23,258 nucleotides of DNA from IMG/VR virus record IMGVR_UViG_3300034190_000487, positions 1 to 23,258 of that record. One strand, written 5' to 3'. The position numbers and the translations under genes are program-made. The first letter of the stretch is position 1; the number at the start of each line of letters is the position of its first letter. Shown here one piece after another: positions 1,441-23,258 of this stretch. Source of the DNA: a virus. The notes under the pieces were generated by a model. It had not been told where the DNA came from, made no database searches, and saw only the letters and a program-made list of their open reading frames with translations.

Positions 1441-2874
1441 ATGTGTTTTCAGAAAAAAACAACAGTTACAAATACTGGATTAGGTGATGCTCAATATCAG
1501 AAGTTACAAACTAATCAAGTAGGTTTAGGCTCTCAAGTAGAAGAGGGTTTTACTGGTGCTGGTACAAAGTTAGATACCATAAATTCCAGTGTATCTGGAT
1601 TAGGTGGTAAAGTTGATAATGTTAATACAGGCGTGACCACTGGCTTCACAAATATGCAAGATCTGATTAACAAGTATAATCAAGGCATGAATACACAGTT
1701 TGATGCTGTTAATGCAGGTGTAAGCAATAACGCAACTGCAATGGCTAACAACGCAACAACAAATGCTAATACTCTGTCTAATCTTCAGTCTGATGTTACA
1801 GGTGGTTTTGATGCGTCTAATACTAGATTTGATACAATTGATAATGCCAATGCAACGATGCAAGGTGCTGTTGATCAGGGTTTTGTAGATCAAGCCCAGG
1901 GATTTACTGACGCACAATCAGATAGAGATGCACAGTTTGCTACTGCTGAAGCTGCACGAGCAGCTAATTTTGCAACTACAGGAGATGTATTAAATCAAGG
2001 GTTTGGTAATGCCACTACTGAAAGAGCTACCAATCAAGCAAACGTATTAGGTGGGCAAAACACCATACAAAGTAATCTAGACACTATGTCTAATACAGCG
2101 GATGCTTACGCCACTCAATCATTAGAAAATCAAGGTGCATTACGTTCTGCTCAAGACGGCTTTATATCAAACTTTGATACCTACGCACAGAGATACGGCG
2201 AAGATACAAAACTAGCTCAACAAACACGAGCAGATATGCAATTAGCAAATGCTAACGCCAACCAACGTATGAGAGAAGATATTGGTAACTTTGCAAACTC
2301 TGCTGCGTCTGACAGGCAAGATATTTCAAATGATATGGATACGCAGTTTGCAGAGCTAGGTAATACAGTTGATGGTGGATTTAGTGCATCTAACGCAGCC
2401 ACTCGATCAGCTATAGTTGCAAACTCCAAGGATAATACTGATGCACTTAATAAGCTACAGTATGATTTGGATACAGGTTTAGAAGACATAAGTGTAGGTC
2501 AAGTTGTTGCTGCGAGAGACTTAGCTAAAGTAGCCTCTACACAAAATGATATTGATATGGAGTTACGTCAAAACTTTAACCAACTTGGTAATGCATTTGA
2601 TGATAGCGGGCAGCTAATAGCAAACAGTATTGATGAGCAGGGTAATACAATTTCACGTTCCGTAGACGAACAAGGTAATTTACTACTTCGAAGCTTTGAT
2701 ATCACTGGCGGAGCAATAGGCGAAAAGTTTCTCAATATCCGTAGCACACTAAGAGATTTACAAGCAGTGCAAAGTCAGCAGGGAGCTAATGCTTCTATGG
2801 GAAATTTATCACCAGCGATGTCGGGTGACGTTCCTACGAGTGGGTTTGCTTCACCGTTTGCTGCAACGAGATAG
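1441..2874 (+). CDS. Repetitive helical virion protein (probable internal or tail-associated protein)
   Basis: The 477-residue product is rich in Asn, Gln, Ala, Asp and Thr and very poor in Cys. Through most of its length it repeats short units built on Gly-Phe or Gln-Phe followed by Asp and Asn, such as QVEEGFTG, GVTTGFTN, QFDAVNAGV, GFDASNTRFD, QGFGNATTE and GGFSASNAATR. The spacing of hydrophobic positions fits long alpha-helical coiled coil. The N-terminus MCFQKKTT is not a signal peptide. No enzymatic motif is visible. It follows the GNAT-like gene by three bases and precedes further large virion genes, the place where T7 carries internal core proteins 14-16. A fibre-like trimeric coiled coil is the main alternative. 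No specific homologue is recognised. Confidence 0.55.
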   Translation: MCFQKKTTVTNTGLGDAQYQKLQTNQVGLGSQVEEGFTGAGTKLDTINSSVSGLGGKVDNVNTGVTTGFTNMQDLINKYNQGMNTQFDAVNAGVSNNATAMANNATTNANTLSNLQSDVTGGFDASNTRFDTIDNANATMQGAVDQGFVDQAQGFTDAQSDRDAQFATAEAARAANFATTGDVLNQGFGNATTERATNQANVLGGQNTIQSNLDTMSNTADAYATQSLENQGALRSAQDGFISNFDTYAQRYGEDTKLAQQTRADMQLANANANQRMREDIGNFANSAASDRQDISNDMDTQFAELGNTVDGGFSASNAATRSAIVANSKDNTDALNKLQYDLDTGLEDISVGQVVAARDLAKVASTQNDIDMELRQNFNQLGNAFDDSGQLIANSIDEQGNTISRSVDEQGNLLLRSFDITGGAIGEKFLNIRSTLRDLQAVQSQQGANASMGNLSPAMSGDVPTSGFASPFAATR

Positions 2875-2883
2875 GATAAATAA

Positions 2884-5052
2884 ATGGGATTATGGTCTAG
2901 CACCTTTGGCGGTGGAAATAGCTTTAAAGAGAGCGTTGCCAATATATCTACGCCTGGTGATAATAAACAGTATCAAGGCGGCAGTCTTGTAAATACAAAT
3001 ACAAATAAAGTTATTCAAGGTGGAGCAATGAACTCCACAGCTACCAATCAGAAGGATAGTAAGGTTGGTTCAACCTCAACTGGATTTGTTGATAATCAAC
3101 CTATTAGCGCTGTTTTAGGTACTTGGGGTGCAGATTCTTCAGTAGGATATGTAAAAGGAAAAGCTCCGACCAAGTTAACGAAAACAATCACAGGGGCTAT
3201 TTCACCAGTAATTCCTATTATGGGAAAAATTGCAGGTTGGGTAAACGGAATTGATCCTAAAGTAGATTCATCTAAGACAGTTGGTAATAGAGAAGTGTAT
3301 ACCAACGAAAAGGGGTTTAGTTACTCTTACAATTTTTTAGGTTTGCCTTACGAAGTAACTGTTGATGGAAATACTGTTGTTGATACATTAAGTATAAAAG
3401 GCGATGATGGTTTAAATGGCTATGAACGACAAGCTCGTTTAGCAGAATCTCGTGGTGATAATGATACTGCAAACCAAATACGCCAAGAACAGCAAAACAA
3501 CCAGGATAATGATGATGATGGTGGTAGTTCTAATATGGAACTTAACCCAGACAACATATTAGAATGGGCTAAGAAAGCGGGCGTGCTTGAGTCTAATGCT
3601 GATTTAAAAGCTATTACAGATGACCCAGCGGGATACTTAAAAACAAAAGGTCTTAACCTAGCAGACATTGTTAACGAGAATGGTGTGCTAATTGATCCTG
3701 AAGATGCATCTGCATTACTAGATCCTAATAATCCTAATTATGCCTTGGGCGATACACCTGTAGTTAACCCTGCATTGATGTCAGATGTAGCAGAAGTTAC
3801 TGCGTCTGATGCGGTAGCGCCTGTCAATTATGAAGCTTCTACTGCCTCTGACTTAATGGGTACAGATGCGACTAGTATTAATGCAGCTACAGGCGAAATA
3901 GATGCAGACACTACGATAGAAGCAGAACAGATTGATATGGTAGGTGCTGCTACTGGTGTAAATGTTGATGGTACAACGAGTGTTGTTGGTAATGCTCTAA
4001 ATGACTTTGCTTCGCAAAATATCAGTAGTATAATTGATACATCTACTGTTGCAGGTAAGTTACTTGCACAAAAGTTAGGTGAAGGTAACTACACAGATAG
4101 TAAGGCTACAATTCTAGGGCAGATGGAAATTATATCTGCTGAATTTAAAAATGCACAAGGTGAACCTATAATACCTGCTTGGGCGCAAGGCCTATCTCGT
4201 GATGTACAGAGAACTATGGCATTTAGTGGTATTACAGGCACGGCTCAAACAGCAGCTATGTCTAATGCTATTATGGAAGCTGTATTAGGAATTGCAGAAA
4301 AAGAAGCAACATTCTTTCAAACTATTACAACAAAGAACTTAGATAATAGACAACAAGCAATTATAAATAAAGCAAGCGTATTAGCAAATTTTGAAACAGC
4401 TAACCTAGATGCTAGACAAGAAGCTGCCGTACAGAATGCACGTAACTTCTTAGAAATGGACTTGAATAATTTAACAAATGAGCAACAAGCTGAAGTAGTA
4501 AACACCCAGTTAATGATGGATGCTATTTTTAATGATCAGGCAGCTATTAATGCGGCTCGTATCTTTGGCGCAGAAAATGCTAACGAATTTCAAAAGTTTT
4601 ACGACACTATGAGTGTGCAAGTACAAACGCATAATAGTGAGCAAATTAACATAATGAAGCGTTTTAATGCAGGTGAAATTAATGATGCATCTGAGTTTAA
4701 TGCAAAAATGCGTGATAGTCGTGATCAGTTCTATGCAAATATGCAATTTAATGTGGATACTGCTAATGCCAAGTGGCGGCAAGAAGTCCTAACTTCAAAC
4801 TCTGAAATGTTATTTGATGCATATTCTGCCGATATCAAAAACTCTATGGATATTAATCAAGAGGGTCTGAATAGAATGTGGGATAGAGTAGATAGCTTAT
4901 TAGATTTCATGTTCAAAGGCGCACAAACAGAAGCCACATTAGAAGCACAAATCTTAGCTTCTGAAATTGCCGCATCTTCGAAAAGCGGTGATTCTAAAAG
5001 CGGTATGTGGAATGCTATCGGGCAAATCGGTGCTGCGTTTATTAGCAGTTAA
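2884..5052 (+). CDS. Large virion protein, helical C-terminal half (putative internal/ejection protein)
   Basis: The 722-residue product has two parts. Residues 1 to about 330 are Gly/Asn/Asp-rich, with low-complexity linkers including a DNDDDGGSSN stretch near 207. Residues about 390-720 are strongly helical and Ala/Gln/Asn-rich (for example DNRQQAIINKAS, LDARQEAAVQNA, LNNLTNEQQAEVVNTQ), consistent with coiled coil. The C-terminus ends in a short hydrophobic Gly/Ala-rich segment (WNAIGQIGAAFISS) that could touch a membrane or another virion part. There is no catalytic motif and no recognised family. Its place between the 477-residue protein and the other large late proteins argues for a particle component, possibly one ejected with DNA. 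The start at 2884 follows AGGATAA. Confidence 0.5.
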   Translation: MGLWSSTFGGGNSFKESVANISTPGDNKQYQGGSLVNTNTNKVIQGGAMNSTATNQKDSKVGSTSTGFVDNQPISAVLGTWGADSSVGYVKGKAPTKLTKTITGAISPVIPIMGKIAGWVNGIDPKVDSSKTVGNREVYTNEKGFSYSYNFLGLPYEVTVDGNTVVDTLSIKGDDGLNGYERQARLAESRGDNDTANQIRQEQQNNQDNDDDGGSSNMELNPDNILEWAKKAGVLESNADLKAITDDPAGYLKTKGLNLADIVNENGVLIDPEDASALLDPNNPNYALGDTPVVNPALMSDVAEVTASDAVAPVNYEASTASDLMGTDATSINAATGEIDADTTIEAEQIDMVGAATGVNVDGTTSVVGNALNDFASQNISSIIDTSTVAGKLLAQKLGEGNYTDSKATILGQMEIISAEFKNAQGEPIIPAWAQGLSRDVQRTMAFSGITGTAQTAAMSNAIMEAVLGIAEKEATFFQTITTKNLDNRQQAIINKASVLANFETANLDARQEAAVQNARNFLEMDLNNLTNEQQAEVVNTQLMMDAIFNDQAAINAARIFGAENANEFQKFYDTMSVQVQTHNSEQINIMKRFNAGEINDASEFNAKMRDSRDQFYANMQFNVDTANAKWRQEVLTSNSEMLFDAYSADIKNSMDINQEGLNRMWDRVDSLLDFMFKGAQTEATLEAQILASEIAASSKSGDSKSGMWNAIGQIGAAFISS

Positions 5053-5080
5053 ATAATATATTTTAATACGGGATGATCCA

Positions 5081-5266
5081 ATGACATTTCAAGAAGCAGT
5101 AAAAAAATCCATCAAACAATTTATGGATGGTAAAATGCCTAAGAACCTCATGGAGGTTAATGGTGGCGAAGTAAAGTACACTCCTGAATATTTTGATGGC
5201 TTTAAAAAGGCTATGGAAGAAGAAGGGGATGCACCAGAAGTAGAGGAAACTACAGATGAAGTTTGA
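5081..5266 (+). CDS. Small acidic protein of unknown function in the virion operon
   Basis: This 61-residue protein has a short amphipathic basic helix at the start (TFQEAVKKSIKQFMDGKMP) and a very acidic tail (EEEGDAPEVEETTDEV). It lies between two late genes, starts 28 bases after the previous stop with GGGATGA upstream, and its end overlaps the next start by 11 bases, so it is likely translated in the operon. The charge split suggests a binding or chaperone-like partner of a neighbouring virion protein, but that is inference. No family is recognised. Confidence 0.6.
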   Translation: MTFQEAVKKSIKQFMDGKMPKNLMEVNGGEVKYTPEYFDGFKKAMEEEGDAPEVEETTDEV

Positions 5267-5834
5267 TGCGCCCGTACCTGGTGCTAATTTATTAGCCGAT
5301 ACTCGTAATTACCCTTGGCATCGCCCACCTGATATTACTGATTATGATGAAGCAGTAAGCTACATGATTACTCGTATCTCTGAAGAAGAACAGGCAGAGT
5401 TAGTATATTCGTTACTACAGATTGATACGACAGTTACGACAATTGTCTCAGGTCTTTTGATGCAGTCAATTGCTAAAGGTAAAATACCAATTGATCTGGC
5501 TATACTTATTTCTGGGCCAGTAGCTAAGTATATCGAGGTTATTGCTGAAACCAGTGGCTACAAATATGACATGGGTACAGATACATCTGACAGGGTTAAG
5601 ATCACACCTACACTGCTGAAAATGGCGATGGGCATCATAGAAGATGATGATGAAGATGAAATGGAAGATACACCAGAAGAAGTGGTATCAGTTATGCCTG
5701 AAGGTGGTCTTATGGGCGCTCCTACAGATGCAGATAAAATGACCGCTACTGATGAAGAACAAGCCTCGATGCTTGGCATGAACGCAGATAGCGAAGAACC
5801 AGTTGAAGAGGAAAACATCGATGGCATGGCGTAA
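5256..5834 (+). CDS. Conserved late-operon protein with acidic tail, unknown function
   Basis: The 192-residue protein has two regions. Residues 1 to about 125 look folded and begin with KFDAPVPGANLLADTRNYPW followed by RPPDITDYDEAV. That opening reminds me of a structural-region protein found in several marine phages, though I cannot verify this here. A hydrophobic helix follows (TTVTTIVSGLLMQSIAKG, then IDLAILISGPVAKYIEVIA). Residues about 128-192 are disordered and extremely acidic (IIEDDDEDEMEDTPEE, ending EEPVEEENIDG). The gene overlaps both neighbours, by 11 bases upstream and 14 downstream, which indicates coupled translation. A role in particle assembly or maturation is inferred from position. 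It could bind the partly basic ejection proteins encoded next to it. Confidence 0.6.
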   Translation: MKFDAPVPGANLLADTRNYPWHRPPDITDYDEAVSYMITRISEEEQAELVYSLLQIDTTVTTIVSGLLMQSIAKGKIPIDLAILISGPVAKYIEVIAETSGYKYDMGTDTSDRVKITPTLLKMAMGIIEDDDEDEMEDTPEEVVSVMPEGGLMGAPTDADKMTATDEEQASMLGMNADSEEPVEEENIDGMA

Positions 5835-8133
5835 CACAAACCCTTCTGATTATGCACCTAAAAGTAATGCTATCGGCGATGCCTTAACAGGGTTTGCCAG
5901 TGTATATGTACCTGCAAAGATTGCTAAAGATAAGCGTGAAGCTGAAATGGCTTACGAAAAAGAAAAGGCAGATGCTAAATCAGCAAAAGAAGCGGCTGAT
6001 AAAGCAGCGGCTAAAGATGCCCAAGATAAAAAAGATGCAAAGATAGTAAGCATTATCTTACGAGAACAGAATCTTGATCCTAAAAAAGTTGTACCTGGTG
6101 TACGATTAGATATTCTTAAAGACGTACAGATAATGGGCAAGGACGCCATATCTTATTACGGCGATCCCAACAAACAGTTTTCTCCAGAATTTGCATATGG
6201 TAGTTCGCCTGTTCTTAGCACGACACCTGTAGTGGATAGCACTGAAAACAATATAACTCAAAGTGACGACACTGCCGCAGCACTTGATGACAGCAGTACT
6301 GATAGTAATTTAGATACAGAAACGGAAACTGTGTTCCCTACAATAGATACAGAAAATGCTTCTGTAGGGGGTGAAGATAAAGAACCTGTCAGTAGATATC
6401 AATCCGTAGCTATAACAAATCAGCAAATAGTAGATTTGGAAGAAGCAGGTAGAATTGCTGCATTAAACGATTCTACTGTTTCAGCCGAAGACAAAAAACG
6501 GATTACTAATTGGATTAACGCAAACCAATCAATATTAGATAAGGAAGCAGAAAAAATTCCGTATGCGGACATAACGGCTACCAACTATATTCAAATAGCG
6601 GCTGGGTTTGAAAATAATACACAGTTACAAAACGGAAAAGAATTAGCTAAGAAAGTCACTGACCTTGGCGAGGTTTTAGTAAAATCTTTAAAGAAACCTT
6701 TAACATTAGTGGAAATAAACCAATTAGAGTTAGAAGTACTTGAAGGCTCAATAGCGGCAGGGGGTTTAGAAGAATCTCAGGCTAAATTATTCGATCAAGT
6801 TATTAAATCCAAGTATAAGAAAATGGGCAGAGAGTTATCTAGATTAGATGATGATGATCTACAAGGTACTAGAGATAACCCACAAGAAACTAAGGAAATG
6901 CAACTTGCTGCTGACGCAATACTTAAAGGTCGCAAGGAAGATTTCGATATAAAAGATTGGGATACTATCAAAGGTGCAACACTTGATGTTGCCATTGGTA
7001 CTGCTACTGGACAAATGAAATCTCAACTAGAGGCATTGAAAAAGGCTCGTGCAAATGTCCCTGCTGAAATCGAATTGGATACAAGCGCAGGTTTCTTAAT
7101 CTCTACTTATCAGGATGAAGATGGTGCTGTGATAATAGCAACTACTGCGCCTACTAAAAATGGACAGTTATTTGATATAGATAGGCAAAGAGTTGTACCT
7201 ACAAATAATAATGTAAGTAGTGTAGCTATTAAAACCCTACAAGCACAGGCGCAAACAGTGTCTCAGATGAATGATAAGGTTTTAGTGCCATTAACAGAAA
7301 GTCGTCGTGAGATGGCTACTATGTTACAGTCTGCTGAAAAATTAGAATCCTTCATTGATCCTAGCAAAGGCGGATCTCCTGAAATATTGACCACAGTCGG
7401 TGGTGATATACAGCGTCTCATTAACCGCTTTAATAATGAATACAAAGCTCTTAATGAGATGTATTTAAAAGGCAGTTCTGATGATGAAGTATTCAGCTAT
7501 ATAGATAGTGTGTCTGTAGGTGAAGATGGCGTTGCATCTAAAGCTTCTCAGTTCGAAGCAGAGTTACTTAAATACGCATACTTATATGCAACAGTATCAC
7601 TCGAACAACGAGGCGCTGGGCTATCCAATACAGACTTTAAGAATGCATTGCAGATTGTAGGTACTGGATCGGATTACACAACATTTAGCAACAATCTAAG
7701 ATCAAGGTCACTTGAGGGTATTGAAAAAGTTAAAGGTAGAATTAACGACCTTGTAGGAACAAGCGCACAGATTAAAATACTAGATCAACTAGACCCATCT
7801 AAGAACTTATCCTCTGGATATACACAGTCTGTAGAACAGTATCTAGAAGGTCGTGGGTTGTCTCATCTTGTAGAATACGCAACCACAAAAGCTACAGTAC
7901 AAAACCCACCACCAGGTAGTGTTGAGAAAAATACATCTAAAATTACCCCTACAATTGGTCAAGCACTTTCAACCTATAAAAACGCACCTACATATGCAGA
8001 AAATCAGGACGCATATAGTGGGATTCTTGGTAGCCAAGGGGAAGTCGAAGCCAATAAATATTTAGATATATTATCGAAGACCTACGACATACCAGTAGAT
8101 GTACTTAGAAAAGAATTTGGAACTCAGGAGTAA
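5821..8133 (+). CDS. Large virion protein (putative internal/ejection protein)
   Basis: Starting at ATG 5821 the product is 770 residues. This start is preferred over an in-frame TTG at 5803 because GAGG lies nine bases upstream of the ATG. Residues about 20-65 form a highly charged Ala/Lys/Asp helix (KDKREAEMAYEKEKADAK). An Asp/Thr/Ser-rich linker spans about 115-185. The rest is mostly helical with several hydrophobic stretches, such as AELLKYAYLYATVSLEQRG near 583-601 followed by GAGLSNTDFKNAL. No catalytic site is apparent. The position just before the largest gene of the cluster matches that of T7 gene 15, an internal core protein. The similarity is of place and style, not of recognised sequence. 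Confidence 0.55.
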   Translation: MAWRNTNPSDYAPKSNAIGDALTGFASVYVPAKIAKDKREAEMAYEKEKADAKSAKEAADKAAAKDAQDKKDAKIVSIILREQNLDPKKVVPGVRLDILKDVQIMGKDAISYYGDPNKQFSPEFAYGSSPVLSTTPVVDSTENNITQSDDTAAALDDSSTDSNLDTETETVFPTIDTENASVGGEDKEPVSRYQSVAITNQQIVDLEEAGRIAALNDSTVSAEDKKRITNWINANQSILDKEAEKIPYADITATNYIQIAAGFENNTQLQNGKELAKKVTDLGEVLVKSLKKPLTLVEINQLELEVLEGSIAAGGLEESQAKLFDQVIKSKYKKMGRELSRLDDDDLQGTRDNPQETKEMQLAADAILKGRKEDFDIKDWDTIKGATLDVAIGTATGQMKSQLEALKKARANVPAEIELDTSAGFLISTYQDEDGAVIIATTAPTKNGQLFDIDRQRVVPTNNNVSSVAIKTLQAQAQTVSQMNDKVLVPLTESRREMATMLQSAEKLESFIDPSKGGSPEILTTVGGDIQRLINRFNNEYKALNEMYLKGSSDDEVFSYIDSVSVGEDGVASKASQFEAELLKYAYLYATVSLEQRGAGLSNTDFKNALQIVGTGSDYTTFSNNLRSRSLEGIEKVKGRINDLVGTSAQIKILDQLDPSKNLSSGYTQSVEQYLEGRGLSHLVEYATTKATVQNPPPGSVEKNTSKITPTIGQALSTYKNAPTYAENQDAYSGILGSQGEVEANKYLDILSKTYDIPVDVLRKEFGTQE

Positions 8134-11100: not shown

Positions 11101-11749
11101 ATTAGACACGGTAGGTGAAAAGATATTTGGGGCTACAGGTACGGCCTTAAAGACAGGTACAAAAGCACGTAAAAATATAAATATAGGTGCAGTTAGTAAG
11201 TTAAGTGCAGATGATGCTAGTAATTTATTCAAGTCTATTAATGTAGTATATGGTAATGACAGCGCTATGGCAGAAGCTGTAACTAATGTTGTTAATATGA
11301 TGTATCAGACATCTTTACCTAGTCGTCTTAAAGTATCCCAAGCTGGATCAGATACAATAATAAACGCAGCACGTAGTGAAGATATACGAGATGCAGTATC
11401 AACAGCTATTCTATTAACTGCAGGTTACATGAACCCTACAGCAGCTATGTTACGCAGAATAACCAGTGTACCAATAGCAGAAGCAGAACGGTTACAGAAA
11501 GAAGTAGCCTCAAATGTATTAGCTGTTATTGTTTCAGACCCTGCTAAGTTCGAAGAACTACTAAGAGCATTAGCAAAAGGGCAAGGCCCTTCTGTCAGAA
11601 AAGTTGCTAATAGATTAGCATTAGAAGCTGTAAGTGCTGCCGCAGCAGGTGGTAGATATGAGATACGTGTTATAGAGGAAGATGCTTTCGGTAAGGAAGA
11701 AAACAGCACTATGGATCGTGACATGTTAGAACTGTTTAGTTTGCAATAA
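8138..11749 (+). CDS. Giant virion protein with duplicated N-terminal motif (putative ejected internal protein, T7 gp16 position)
   Basis: The 1203-residue product is the last gene of the late operon, where T7 has gp16, the ejected core protein. ATG 8138 is chosen over an in-frame ATG at 8099 because AGGAG sits seven bases before it. The N-terminus holds a tandem duplication: LTPDELKFLEDNNLPIPVPL (about 5-24) and LNDEELDFLNANNLSVPEPL (about 34-53). Hydrophobic stretches near 250-310 (EIASTILSIAAPTLPVTKAL; GTALAIALGGAVSETIM) could insert in the cell envelope during DNA entry. The middle and end are long charged helices. No lysozyme/transglycosylase motif like that of T7 gp16 is visible, so wall cleavage during entry must lie elsewhere if it occurs. 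The stop abuts the leftward terminator at 11748-11775. Confidence 0.6.
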   Translation: MADTTLTPDELKFLEDNNLPIPVPLEEDDTTTSPELNDEELDFLNANNLSVPEPLKLYGGTEEDWQGEAENYSNEASKVKAPVIEKDKRDAFTYDNLYGEVTLEDGNKLEKPNLSVFDSIGAMFYDAVNPEGAPKKKSQVARDTYKEEIEKYSTAVKDLYESDAFYTEGVNQIYDRYIPVKDAEGNVTKYNYEKVLIPNPEFDSSGFRRVIDQAGRNIYQELGGLVTEGAIMGKSKFAESRPDMDLSGGEEIASTILSIAAPTLPVTKALKYGGGLLKYASTAGRSGEVGTRGTALAIALGGAVSETIMSGEGDEGLFVKPSAVTDLLPNISEQNAKNLAMFIDGLAINGVMDGALSLLGRGLGFAYGKVSAGRQALNKNALKKAVQDGTLLEVFKYLDPDIVNLKPAQLKLRISTLADKLNDNRIIKVALGDITGEITADTTNAIMMSSDAYIRETRAGLKNTMSAEAFEELVNKEAARMSSSMIGLFRSQLSDSRVAGTVDSVPNQIGEFITGAAAKKLDGEDIDLAAQSVASQVVKGADAEVSALNLQKNELNTQTDEILKAQSDVITDNPVLQDIVGDLTGTDNIFNNTNNEMRKKLNELISTDIYDEFVAVMDEVDLAYKNLPEAPIDVDLFNSKLAEVTESINLIDNTGARTKKALNELFDSPVDDVMENIGEGLNFKDLYTLKARLARVIDAYSDQPSVMQKLKEFRKHITDDKNGQMEYVIRTQDDPAIAAAYKAADDKYKLAKAQFARSEPMRRLTDTFQEMRKFDYEDANYPGPGQRNQDDVILAGNQFVNEVIADETGTLMDGLIFAAKDITNPEELKGSFRDMFVAKAANSLRDVLASGSGGSEPEKVLFNAFAPVRDQLQRLGDQDLLNRVQKAFDQVSAAHSGLGDVKAANDLLVKELDASIKQAHEGVVKQLIDTTATGTGSSTVTSSAKSVIRSIMTSKNSANRMQELVDKIELLPDEVQKNLAREALQAVALDTVGEKIFGATGTALKTGTKARKNINIGAVSKLSADDASNLFKSINVVYGNDSAMAEAVTNVVNMMYQTSLPSRLKVSQAGSDTIINAARSEDIRDAVSTAILLTAGYMNPTAAMLRRITSVPIAEAERLQKEVASNVLAVIVSDPAKFEELLRALAKGQGPSVRKVANRLALEAVSAAAAGGRYEIRVIEEDAFGKEENSTMDRDMLELFSLQ

Positions 11750-11775
11750 AAAACCCCCAGACCGAAGTCCAGGGG
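11748..11775 (-). terminator. Leftward intrinsic terminator with UUCG tetraloop
   Basis: Read on the minus strand, CCCCTGGAC and GTCTGGGGG form a continuous 9-bp stem (two G-U pairs) closed by TTCG in the very stable C(UUCG)G setting. Six T follow (11748-11753). On the plus strand two pairs would be C-A mismatches, so it is built to stop leftward transcripts leaving the early operon. It touches the stop codon of the last late gene. Confidence 0.85.
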
Positions 11776-11832
11776 CTTAAACACAAAACAGAACCGACCA
11801 AGGTTCAGTCTCTAGATTTTTATATATATTTT

Positions 11833-11866
11833 ACGCCTTCAGGTCAAGCACTTGAGGGCGTTTTTT
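11833..11866 (+). terminator. Rightward intrinsic terminator of the late operon
   Basis: ACGCCTTCAGGT (11833-11844) and ACTTGAGGGCGT (11850-11861) pair over 12 bp with two G-T wobbles and a 5-base loop, followed by six T including the last stem base (11861-11866). The minus strand lacks a T-run after the stem. A weaker hairpin, GAACC/GGTTC at 11791-11806, lies just before it. The T-run ends against the stop codon of the leftward gene at 11865. Confidence 0.85.
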
Positions 11867-12287
11867 ATTGCATTGTTTGAATAAATACAGCTTTTTCTTT
11901 AGGTATATCAAAGAACTTTTCACCAAAGCGTATCTTCTTGTTAGGCACTTCTACGATAGGGCTATCCCATACAGATTTCCTACTGATTATAGCTGCATGT
12001 GTTAAGCTATTATTAAACACCATAAACTGTGTTGGCTTGTCTAAGAACTTAGCTTTGCGTACTGGTATATGTATTGTGTCATAATTAAAATCTACACCAT
12101 GCCAGACGGTTTTAACCTCAACCTCACAGAAGAATCTTTTACCATCTTTCTCTACAACAAGATCTACATCATACTCGTTTTCATGATCAGTGCATGTATA
12201 GCCTTGGCTACTCCAGAATGATTTAGCCTGATTACGTGCTGCTTCATCGTACTTGTCGAAGTCTTTCGATTGGAATACTTTGTACAT
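11865..12287 (-). CDS. PD-(D/E)XK-like nuclease, small
   Basis: The 140-residue protein carries a clear nuclease-core pattern: YDVDLVVEKDGK (D40, D42) followed after 14 residues by FFCEVEVKTVW (E55, E57, K59), and an N-terminal helix with AARNQAKSFW. This D...ExK strand-turn-strand layout is that of PD-(D/E)XK (restriction-endonuclease-like) enzymes, which cut DNA with bound metal. Its target is unknown; host DNA degradation or recombination are the usual roles in such phages. It is the last gene of the leftward operon, set apart from the RNR gene by about 140 bases with two hairpins, so its level may be controlled separately. AGGA lies seven bases before the ATG. The terminal residues IQTMQ run up to the rightward terminator. 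Confidence 0.6.
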   Translation of the reverse strand: MYKVFQSKDFDKYDEAARNQAKSFWSSQGYTCTDHENEYDVDLVVEKDGKRFFCEVEVKTVWHGVDFNYDTIHIPVRKAKFLDKPTQFMVFNNSLTHAAIISRKSVWDSPIVEVPNKKIRFGEKFFDIPKEKAVFIQTMQ

Positions 12288-17142: not shown

Positions 17143-17144
17143 GT
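17132..17144 (+). promoter_or_regulatory. Copy 2 of the AAGTGRTAC motif (possible operator)
   Basis: AAGTGGTACAAGT covers the -35 box of the promoter at 17113-17142. It differs at one base from AAGTGATACAAGT at 23021-23033, and the extended TAGTTAAGTGGTAC is identical to 914-927. Overlap with the -35 box would suit a repressor. Confidence 0.4.
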
Positions 17145-19282
17145 CAAGTGTATTCGTTTTGTTCCAACCAGTTTTTTCCACCAGAAATCTCTATTTCTAG
17201 GGGTAGGGCAAAGGTGTAGTCCCAGCGCTGGGCAGCTTCTTCAGTCACACCAACCATGGCCCAAGTTAAAGCCTCTTTGACCTGCTCTAATTCACCAGGA
17301 TAAACATCACAGACTATGGAATCATGCACAGTCAGGACTAATAAAGATTTTAGTTTAAGCTCTTTAAACTTACGGAAAGCACGTACACAGGACAGGAGCA
17401 TAAGATCCGCTGCACTAGACTGAACAGGGTAATTAACTATCTGTGTATAGAAGGTAGTGCGATTACCTTTTAATCGTTTTACGTTAGGCCAAAAGAATTG
17501 CCTACCTGAAGGTGTTTGCACAATACCATTCTTTAAAACACCTTTTGCAAGCCTTTCATGATAAGCACCTAAACCCTGATAGATATTAAAGAACTCACTA
17601 AAATAATTCTGAACGTGAGGAGCTTCTCCTGCTCCACGACCCCCATAAATGGGGCTAAAACTGAATTTTTTAGACCCCTGGCGAAGATCCTTAGTCACTC
17701 TATCTTCACTACATTGATGTATTATTGATGCGGTCTGTTTGTGTAAGTCTTTGCCGTTAACAACGTCAGCTATAATCTGGGTATCTCTACTTAATTCCCC
17801 TGCGAGTACAAATTCAATAGAACTGAAATCTGCCTCAACTACTGTTCCGTTTTCAAATCTACTTACAACAGCCTTTCGTACAGGAAACCCACGCTTTGGT
17901 GCATTCTGCATGTTGGGGGCAGTGCTAGATAATCTACCAGTGGCAGTAACACACTGGGTAAACTGTGTGTGTAATATACCATCTGCTCTAGTCCAAGTTT
18001 CAAACCCTTTAATAAAACTATCTAAATAAACATTTACAGCATTTAGTCTGCTGCTCTTTGTTAGAAACTCTACAGCTATATCATTGCCTTTACTTTCAGC
18101 CTGAGAGATTAATCTTTCTATGGTAACTTTATCAGTCTTGAATCCATTTATAGAGGCATCAGAAGGTGTAGCAGGATTAAGCTTTAGACCTGCAGTTATA
18201 CCATTTGGGTTGTAGAAAGCCCCAACGCCCAAACAAGTAGGGCATTTAGATAGGTTCTTGTATGGATCACCTTGCACCCTATACTTCTTGCCCATCTTAG
18301 TACGAGTGATTTGCTTAAACTTTTGGATACGTCCACGCCCATCGCAAGCATCGCAGCATATAACATCAGTACGTTGAATGATTTTAGTCGTTGCTCTAAC
18401 AGCTTTGCTGAAAGCACTCTTGTTCATTCGTGGCGGGTATAATGGTTTACCTGTCGGCCCAACACCAATGTTCCAGACCTGTTTGTGGTCATTACGATCT
18501 AGTACTTCACGGCTGTATACAACCTTAGTCATATCAGCGCCCGATGCTAAGTTGATAGGCGTGTCGCCCATAACCTCTTCGACTATCTCTTCTAAGCGTT
18601 TGTTGAGATCCTGTTGCTCTTGCATAAACTCTTGTTTGATTTCATCCAACTTAGTTAGGTCAATCTTTATGCCGTTTCTTTCGATCTCTACTAAGAACAA
18701 CAGCATTTCATTACTCAGCTTCACTGTCTCTGCTAATGATAGATTGCTTTTAGCTGCATACTCGTCTTGCTGAGATAAATATATTTCACCACAGGATATA
18801 ACATCAGCCTCTGCGTACTCTAATACTGTAGCCAAAGGCATAGCCTCAAAACCAGTGCCACTCTTGAATAGATCATCTACAAGGTCAGACTTCTTGCGTG
18901 TAACATCTCTGCGTTCAGCTATTGCTTTGAGCGACAACGGACGTTTCTGCCCTTTAGATAAGATGTATTCACCTATCATCGTGCAATACACTTTATCAGG
19001 GATTTTAAAGCCCATTTCTAACAACCAGGTAACATCAAACTTGGCATTGTGGCAGATAAGCAGCGTAGCCTTATTTAGTGCTTCTTGCATCTGCGCTGGG
19101 CTATCAGGAACGTCCTGTTCATTATGATGAAATACAAGGTTCGTTACTTCATCTACACCTTCCCATCCAATGAAACCAAAGTGGGCGCTTACACATTTAT
19201 TATCAGGATGGTACGGGCTGTTGTCCGTCTTTCCACCCAAGGTCTGAACAGTTGTTTCTAAATCCAAAACTAATATGTTCAT
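17144..19282 (-). CDS. DNA polymerase, family A (T7/Pol I type) with proofreading and a CXXCXGXG insertion
   Basis: The 712-residue replicative polymerase has a 3'-5' exonuclease domain with VLDLETT (D7, E9), CHNAKFDVTWLLE (N79, D83) and EYAEADV (Y156, D160). Polymerase motifs are A (EADFSSIE, D485), B (RQGSKKFSFSPIYG, R534, K538, F542, Y546) and C (TVHDS, H653, D654). Phe occupies the position of E. coli F762. Motif C reads HDS where most family members have HDE. In the thumb, about 309-355, lie two DnaJ-like cysteine pairs, CDACDGRG and CPTCLGVG, probably binding one zinc. ATG 19282 overlaps the methyltransferase stop, with GGGAG upstream; a GTG one codon earlier is possible. It works with the neighbouring helicase and primase at the fork. 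Confidence 0.93.
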   Translation of the reverse strand: MNILVLDLETTVQTLGGKTDNSPYHPDNKCVSAHFGFIGWEGVDEVTNLVFHHNEQDVPDSPAQMQEALNKATLLICHNAKFDVTWLLEMGFKIPDKVYCTMIGEYILSKGQKRPLSLKAIAERRDVTRKKSDLVDDLFKSGTGFEAMPLATVLEYAEADVISCGEIYLSQQDEYAAKSNLSLAETVKLSNEMLLFLVEIERNGIKIDLTKLDEIKQEFMQEQQDLNKRLEEIVEEVMGDTPINLASGADMTKVVYSREVLDRNDHKQVWNIGVGPTGKPLYPPRMNKSAFSKAVRATTKIIQRTDVICCDACDGRGRIQKFKQITRTKMGKKYRVQGDPYKNLSKCPTCLGVGAFYNPNGITAGLKLNPATPSDASINGFKTDKVTIERLISQAESKGNDIAVEFLTKSSRLNAVNVYLDSFIKGFETWTRADGILHTQFTQCVTATGRLSSTAPNMQNAPKRGFPVRKAVVSRFENGTVVEADFSSIEFVLAGELSRDTQIIADVVNGKDLHKQTASIIHQCSEDRVTKDLRQGSKKFSFSPIYGGRGAGEAPHVQNYFSEFFNIYQGLGAYHERLAKGVLKNGIVQTPSGRQFFWPNVKRLKGNRTTFYTQIVNYPVQSSAADLMLLSCVRAFRKFKELKLKSLLVLTVHDSIVCDVYPGELEQVKEALTWAMVGVTEEAAQRWDYTFALPLEIEISGGKNWLEQNEYT

Positions 19283-19806
19283 CACGTTCTCCCATAAAAT
19301 CTCGTTGCATAAGTTTCATCGTGGCGATCAAACAAATACCAACAGGCGTTATCTTTACCTGCGGTTTTGTCGAACCATTTCACACGACCAACGCTTACGA
19401 TCTTTCTTAGGCGAGGCATGAATGGAATAGCTTGCTTAGTGTGTACCCAATCAGCATCAAACAGCAGCCACGTAGGTCTAAGGTCTGAGAACCGTTCTAT
19501 CATAGGATGCAGAAGCTTACGCTCCCACGGTGGGTTTGTGATAATTAGATCTGCATCGTATAAATGCTCTTCAGTAATCTCACAGGCATTTTGGATATCA
19601 ATGCCATTAGATTGTGGCTCAATATCGTATGCGCTTGAGCAGGTCAGCCCAATCTCTTGTAGTGATCTGATTAATGCACCATCTCCTGCACACGGTTCGC
19701 AGAAGGTTTGATGCTCCTGAAGGTAAGGCCAAATAGGAAATACAGCCTCACGAGGGGTTCTATAATAATCTCTTGGATTTCTTTCAAAGTTTGATCGTTT
19801 TCCCAT
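19282..19806 (-). CDS. Orphan DNA methyltransferase (N6-adenine type)
   Basis: The 174-residue protein has the AdoMet-binding motif FCEPCAGDGALI (about 35-46), the acidic residue after the second strand (YDIEPQSNGID, about 60-70), and the catalytic NPPW (91-94) preceded by DLIIT, typical of amino-methyltransferases acting on adenine (or cytosine N4). The C-terminus is Trp/Arg-rich (RVKWFDKTAGKDNACWYLFD). No restriction partner is encoded nearby, so it more likely protects phage DNA from host enzymes or marks replicated DNA than forms a restriction system. It sits between helicase and polymerase with one-base and three-base overlaps, so it is made with the replication machinery. It is short, with little room for a separate target-recognition domain. 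Confidence 0.78.
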   Translation of the reverse strand: MGKRSNFERNPRDYYRTPREAVFPIWPYLQEHQTFCEPCAGDGALIRSLQEIGLTCSSAYDIEPQSNGIDIQNACEITEEHLYDADLIITNPPWERKLLHPMIERFSDLRPTWLLFDADWVHTKQAIPFMPRLRKIVSVGRVKWFDKTAGKDNACWYLFDRHDETYATRFYGRT

Positions 19807-22946: not shown

Positions 22947-22988
22947 ATAACCTGAAGGTCGTAGGTTCAAATCCTACTCCCGCAACCA
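22947..22988 (+). other. 3' half of initiator tRNA (tRNA-fMet); putative attP core
   Basis: These 42 bases run from inside the anticodon loop (ATAACCTGA) through the variable region and T-arm (GTAGG, loop TTCAAAT, CCTAC) to TCCCGCA-A-CCA, agreeing with alphaproteobacterial tRNA-fMet as I recall it. The A at the acceptor end (position 72) fits the initiator-specific C1-A72 mismatch. The 5' half is absent: the bases upstream do not make a D-arm or the matching acceptor strand. A tRNA 3' half beginning in the anticodon loop is the classic form of a phage attachment core used by tyrosine integrases. No integrase is in this window. Confidence 0.65.
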
Positions 22989-23020
22989 ATAGATTGATAT
23001 CATTGAATTTTTATATTTCA

Positions 23021-23084: not shown

Positions 23085-23258
23085 TCACTTCGAATCCATT
23101 AATGCATCCCAAGATACTGGATATAATCTTTTCATTATATCGCTGATCTCGTCTGCAATTATTTTTGTTTCGTTCTGTGTGTCGCTAGTACAGCGCAGCT
23201 TACACATATCTGCAAAGGCATCTAAACTACCAGACCAATACCATTCGGTCATTAGATT
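23085..23258 (-). CDS. thyX: Flavin-dependent thymidylate synthase ThyX, C-terminal part (partial)
   Basis: The frame enters from the right edge and ends at TGA 23085-23087, giving 57 residues. The segment MTEWYWSGSLDAFADMCKLR, then TSDTQNETKIIADEI, ending YPVSWDALMDSK, matches the end of ThyX, where the Arg after the SL..F helix and the following D-x-Q-x-E helix help form the substrate site. ThyX makes dTMP from dUMP with folate and FAD, which complements the RNR and MazG downstream. The RHR signature would lie outside the window. A run of nine A follows the stop on the coding strand, then the promoter for the next operon. The call is from sequence pattern in the visible 57 residues only. 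Confidence 0.75.
   Translation of the reverse strand, partial: NLMTEWYWSGSLDAFADMCKLRCTSDTQNETKIIADEISDIMKRLYPVSWDALMDSK

What the first reader, a model, noticed from the sequence alone, without database searches (positions are those of the whole stretch)
22947..22988. tRNA-fMet 3' half in a lytic-looking podovirus: a likely attP without a visible integrase
The 42-base match starts inside the anticodon loop and ends at CCA, which is how integrases that use tRNA genes define their core. The 5' half of the tRNA is missing, so this is not a working tRNA. The rest of the window (T7-like replication genes, RNR, MazG, ThyX) looks like a strictly lytic phage. If the core is functional, the phage can lysogenise, with an integrase encoded elsewhere or supplied in trans. 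Otherwise it is a relic of lysogeny or a decoy of the initiator tRNA. Using the initiator tRNA gene as target would be notable because it is essential and often present in few copies.
Basis: partly seen in the sequence, partly recalled or inferred. Interest (0 to 1): 0.72.

Follow-up and report, generated by a model that had tools for sequence, protein, structure and literature searches.

The report
Roseophage attachment site in tRNA-fMet
The 42-base tRNA fragment is the integration (attP) site of a temperate marine phage related to Roseobacter phage CRP-3; its integrase gene lies just past the end of this incomplete contig, so the arrangement is ordinary and, for a relative, already shown by experiment.

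Summary
In detail: window 22947-22988 is identical to the last 42 nt of alphaproteobacterial initiator tRNA-fMet (anticodon loop to CCA), and no complete tRNA is present. The attP reading is very probably right. The missing integrase and lytic look come from truncation: the window is a whole 23,258-base IMG/VR fragment that ends inside thyX. Contig L242 overlaps its right end over 4.8 kb at 99.4% identity and carries a tyrosine integrase just beyond thyX, about 457 bases past the window's end. Roseobacter phages CRP-3, CRP-212 and CRP-235 (HMO-2011-type) have the same tRNA part between primase and thyX/integrase genes. Integration of CRP-3 into tRNA-Met(CAT) was shown by hybrid reads and PCR (PMC6918029), and its phage-side primers map on either side of the homologous element. 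In 65 of 73 loci with this integrase, the tRNA-fMet 3' part lies 0.26-2.0 kb downstream on the opposite strand; five others carry a 3' part of another tRNA. Other integrases also use tRNA-fMet in alphaproteobacteria, so the target is not unusual. No integrated relative was found in 397 + 12 Rhodobacteraceae genomes.

The parts
22947..22988 (+). attP core: last 42 nt of tRNA-fMet, anticodon loop to CCA
   Evidence: unique in window, 0 in shuffles; identical to host tRNA-fMet; same place as the experimentally mapped CRP-3 attP
22951..22988 (+). 38-nt portion kept across the phage family (CCTGAAGG...CCA); the crossover should lie at or right of its left end
   Evidence: 95% mean pairwise identity in 9 divergent phages against 34-52% in the flanks; the crossover position is inferred
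22993..23006 (+). ATTGATATCATTGA, putative integrase arm-type site in the right flank
   Evidence: exact match to ATTGANNTCATTGA, shuffle p 0.003; the motif stands at the same distance left and/or right of the core in several relatives; function inferred
23085..23258 (-). 3' end of thyX, cut by the end of the contig (57 codons and the stop)
   Evidence: translation; identical C-terminus in the complete thyX of L242, PF02511
22530..22790 (-). 86-aa ORF between attP and primase, function unknown
   Evidence: ORF list; same ORF in L242
21776..22546 (-). DNA primase on the other side of attP; used to find relatives
   Evidence: relative of the annotated CRP-3 primase, 46% identity; relatives

Best explanation
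The element is the core of attP of a temperate, CRP-3-like (HMO-2011-type) roseophage. A phage-encoded tyrosine integrase, whose gene lies about 457 bases beyond the contig end past thyX, recombines this core with the identical 3' part of the host tRNA-fMet gene. After integration, the host 5' part and the phage 3' part form an intact tRNA gene on the thyX/integrase side, and the displaced host 3' part remains on the primase side. Shown: the sequence, its identity with host tRNA-fMet, the integrase in the adjoining DNA of the same population, the family-wide pairing of integrase and tRNA part, and (literature) integration of the relative CRP-3 at this gene. Inferred: that this particular phage integrates, the exact crossover, and the role of the flanking repeats.
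For: Exact 42-nt match to host tRNA-fMet. Contig L242: 99.36% identical to the window's right end over 4,821 bases, then thyX and a PF00589 integrase. CRP-3, CRP-212 and CRP-235 have the same element and an integrase. CRP-3 integration into tRNA-Met(CAT) shown by hybrid reads and PCR (PMC6918029); its two phage-side primers map to 2829-2849 (+) and 3642-3662 (-), facing each other across the element at 3153-3213. 65 of 73 integrase loci carry the fMet 3' part 258-1973 bases downstream on the opposite strand, 57 with all 38 bases identical. Core conserved far above its flanks; where it varies, both sides of the T-stem vary together.
Against: No attL/attR junction of this phage or its near relatives was found; no member of the integrase family in 397 + 12 Rhodobacteraceae genomes. 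The tool notes that an empty answer without a positive control genome shows little. The host is unknown. The integrase is joined to the window only by an overlap between two metagenomic contigs.
Confidence: 0.95

Rival explanations
1. A relic: the phage lineage once integrated at tRNA-fMet but the site is no longer used by this phage.
For: No integrated relatives in the genomes searched; infrequent lysogeny is suggested for some marine podoviruses (PMC6918029).
Against: Integrase gene open and full length in L242; core identity kept while its flanks diverge, and paired T-stem changes.
Confidence: 0.03
2. A decoy or regulatory RNA derived from the initiator tRNA, without a role in integration.
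For: Only that the fragment keeps the T-arm and acceptor 3' strand.
Against: It is the site flanked by the CRP-3 integration primers; five relatives carry a different tRNA's 3' part near the integrase, which a decoy of the initiator tRNA does not explain.
Confidence: 0.01
3. A chimeric assembly that joins host tRNA sequence to phage DNA.
For: The tRNA part is identical to many hosts.
Against: The same junctions occur in independent metagenome contigs and in isolate genomes.
Confidence: 0.01

Closest known systems
Roseobacter phage CRP-3 integration system at tRNA-Met(CAT) (HMO-2011-type; PMC6918029, PMC9038755)
   Same: Same tRNA, same 38-nt core, same place between primase and thyX/integrase, homologous integrase (46.5% identity over 100% of the query).
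   Different: Diverged genes (primase 46% identity); identity with the tRNA reaches 4 nt further into the anticodon loop; the core lies about 0.73 kb from int (L242) instead of about 1.6 kb.
tRNA-targeting genomic islands and prophages with tyrosine integrases (as in the Islander database, PMC4383910, abstract)
   Same: The element carries the 3' part of a tRNA gene that restores the split target.
   Different: Often int lies next to the att site (own knowledge); here thyX and, in relatives, other small genes lie between.

Membership tests
attP of a tRNA-targeting tyrosine-integrase phage | Core identical to the 3' part of a host tRNA gene, through to its 3' end | tested here: met
attP of a tRNA-targeting tyrosine-integrase phage | Tyrosine integrase encoded by the same phage | tested here: met
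   L242 overlaps the window at 99.36% identity and encodes a PF00589 protein; not in the window itself
attP of a tRNA-targeting tyrosine-integrase phage | attL/attR junctions or demonstrated recombination | tested here: inconclusive
   none found for this phage; shown for CRP-3 in the literature, primers mapped
HMO-2011-type phages (CRP-3-like) | DNA polymerase A with a DnaJ-like insert holding two CXXCXGXG motifs | tested here: met
   CDACDGRG and CPTCLGVG in the translation of 17144-19285; DNA_pol_A and exonuclease domains; feature described
HMO-2011-type phages (CRP-3-like) | Gene order int - thyX - attP - primase - helicase - polymerase - MazG/RNR | tested here: met
HMO-2011-type phages (CRP-3-like) | Placement by five-gene phylogeny | not tested
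   no tree was built; the window lacks the portal, capsid and terminase genes

The most novel reading that the evidence does not exclude
The CRP-3-like integrase lineage keeps attP at one fixed place (between int/thyX and primase) but has switched tRNA target more than once (fMet; another tRNA ending GGCCTACCA; tRNA-Asn in CRP-738), with ATTGANNTCATTGA repeats beside the core acting as arm-type sites.
Probability: 0.45. Interest if true: 0.3.

Novelty: new member of a known kind. Interest (0 to 1): 0.17.

Why it matters
It shows that a fragment that looks lytic belongs to a temperate phage group, and that a tRNA 3' part alone can mark lysogeny potential in truncated metagenomic contigs. For HMO-2011-type phages it gives attP predictions beyond CRP-3, including CRP-738 at tRNA-Asn(GTT), that can be checked by PCR in cultured hosts.

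Tried and rejected
IHF site: a consensus match (WATCAANNNNTTR) overlaps the CCA end in the window, CRP-3 and some close relatives but is absent from the others, so it is not claimed as a part. Prophages of this family: none in 397 + 12 Rhodobacteraceae genomes. Two genome loci with a partly similar left flank (L080, L087) carry no primase, thyX or integrase of this family. A tRNA 3' part near the integrases of HMO-2011, CRP-2 and CRP-207 was sought by a T-arm pattern: nothing credible, so their attP stays unknown. Rfam gave only sub-threshold leader matches. Relic, decoy and chimera were considered and set aside for the reasons given under the rivals.

Full report
Observation. The 42 bases at 22947-22988 (+) are present once, and shuffled windows never give them, even with three mismatches. 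They are identical to the last 42 nt of initiator tRNA-fMet: of the genome loci fetched with the same 42-mer, 97 have it inside a complete tRNA, the commonest being CGCGGGATGGAGCAGCCCGGTAGCTCGTCAGGCTCATAACCTGAAGGTCGTAGGTTCAAATCCTACTCCCGCAACCA, with the C1/A72 mismatch typical of initiator tRNAs. The 5' half is not in the window.

Why no integrase is seen. The window is the complete record of a 23,258-base virus contig. It ends inside thyX, of which only the last 57 codons are present. A search with the window's primase brought in contig L242, which matches the window's right end over 4,821 bases at 99.36% identity. L242 continues through thyX (6144-6770) into a 357-aa tyrosine integrase (5067-6140; PF00589, E 3.8e-14). 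The integrase gene's 3' end lies about 457 bases beyond the window's end. The order in L242 is int, thyX, tRNA part (on the opposite strand), an 86-aa ORF, primase.

Relatives. The same element is in Roseobacter phages CRP-3, CRP-235 and CRP-212, all with an annotated integrase on the far side of thyX. [quoted passage not shown] also PMC9038755). The supplementary figure with the exact core could not be read here, so I mapped the published primers: attL-R lies at CRP-3 2829-2849 (+) and attR-F at 3642-3662 (-), facing each other across the element at 3153-3213. The homologous element is therefore at the mapped attP of CRP-3.

Family-wide test. Of 73 loci that carry a relative of the L242 integrase, 65 have the fMet 3' part 258-1973 bases downstream of the integrase gene on the opposite strand, 57 of them with all 38 core bases identical. 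Of the other eight, five carry a 3' part of another tRNA ending GGCCTACCA: L273, L290, L299 and L322 downstream of int, L308 upstream. L307 has an fMet part upstream of int, L309 ends 243 bases after int, and L330 shows none. None of these loci holds a complete tRNA, as expected of free phage DNA. Among nine divergent phages the 38-nt core keeps 95% mean pairwise identity, against 52% in the left flank and 34-45% in the right. Where the core varies, both sides of the T-stem vary together (CRP-212, L260, L264), as expected if each copy tracks a host tRNA gene.

Mechanism. After recombination the host 5' part joins the phage 3' part, giving an intact tRNA-fMet beside the thyX/integrase end of the prophage; the old 3' part stays at the primase end. 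The crossover is not known. In the fMet-type sites examined, identity with the tRNA always includes CCTGAAGG but varies to the left of it, so the crossover should lie at or right of that point (inference). Repeats of the form ATTGANNTCATTGA stand at fixed distances left and/or right of the core in several divergent relatives; arm-type sites are the likely reading, untested.

How unusual is the target. Displaced tRNA-fMet 3' parts close to other tyrosine-recombinase-like ORFs occur in Palleronia, Aliiroseovarius, Ruegeria, Roseovarius and a Sphingomonadales genome (recognised by catalytic-motif patterns). One genome in the genus of L043 has a complete tRNA-fMet and a second 47-nt 3' copy 25 kb away on the same contig. 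Use of tRNA-fMet as a target is therefore not rare in these bacteria.

Limits. No lysogen of this phage or its near relatives was found, and those empty answers lack a positive control genome. The host is not known. Membership in the CRP-3-like group rests on gene order, the DnaJ-like insert of the polymerase and the shared integrase/attP plan, not on a tree. The join between window and L242 is an overlap of two metagenomic contigs of one population.

Verdict. A real attP of a known kind, explained by a published relative; low interest. The parts that seem not to be in the papers read are the attP predictions for relatives (CRP-738 at tRNA-Asn, the GGCCTACCA tRNA in a few contigs) and the flanking repeats.

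Noticed in passing
L336 (CRP-738) about 2905-2965, - strand: Between integrase and primase, CRP-738 carries GTTAATCAATTGGTCGTTGGTTCGATCCCAACCGCCGGAGCCA, close to the 3' part of tRNA-Asn(GTT) of Rhodobacteraceae, with no complete tRNA there: a predicted attP with another target.
   Followed up: partly
L273, L299, L290, L322, L308: Integrase relatives with a 3' part of another tRNA ending GGCCTACCA in place of tRNA-fMet; a similar CAT-anticodon tRNA exists in genome locus L018.
   Followed up: partly
L253 2127-3110; L249 2238-3212; L279 1631-2581: The stretch between int/thyX and attP varies in gene content among close relatives: L253 lacks thyX and has other small ORFs, L249 has an extra 206-aa ORF, and a 68-76-aa ORF (MAYQKDYNFVFENGDT...) recurs beside attP.
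   Followed up: partly
L087 core at 3217; L080 core at 928 (core on + strand): Displaced tRNA-fMet 3' parts in two Rhodobacteraceae contigs share a left flank (ATCAAAGGCTTAT...TATTGGAATCAT) with each other but hold no genes of this phage family; probably ends of another integrative element.
   Followed up: partly
window 11737-11875: Strong hairpin followed by a T run between the two convergent gene blocks, giving sub-threshold Rfam leader matches; probably a transcription terminator.
   Followed up: no
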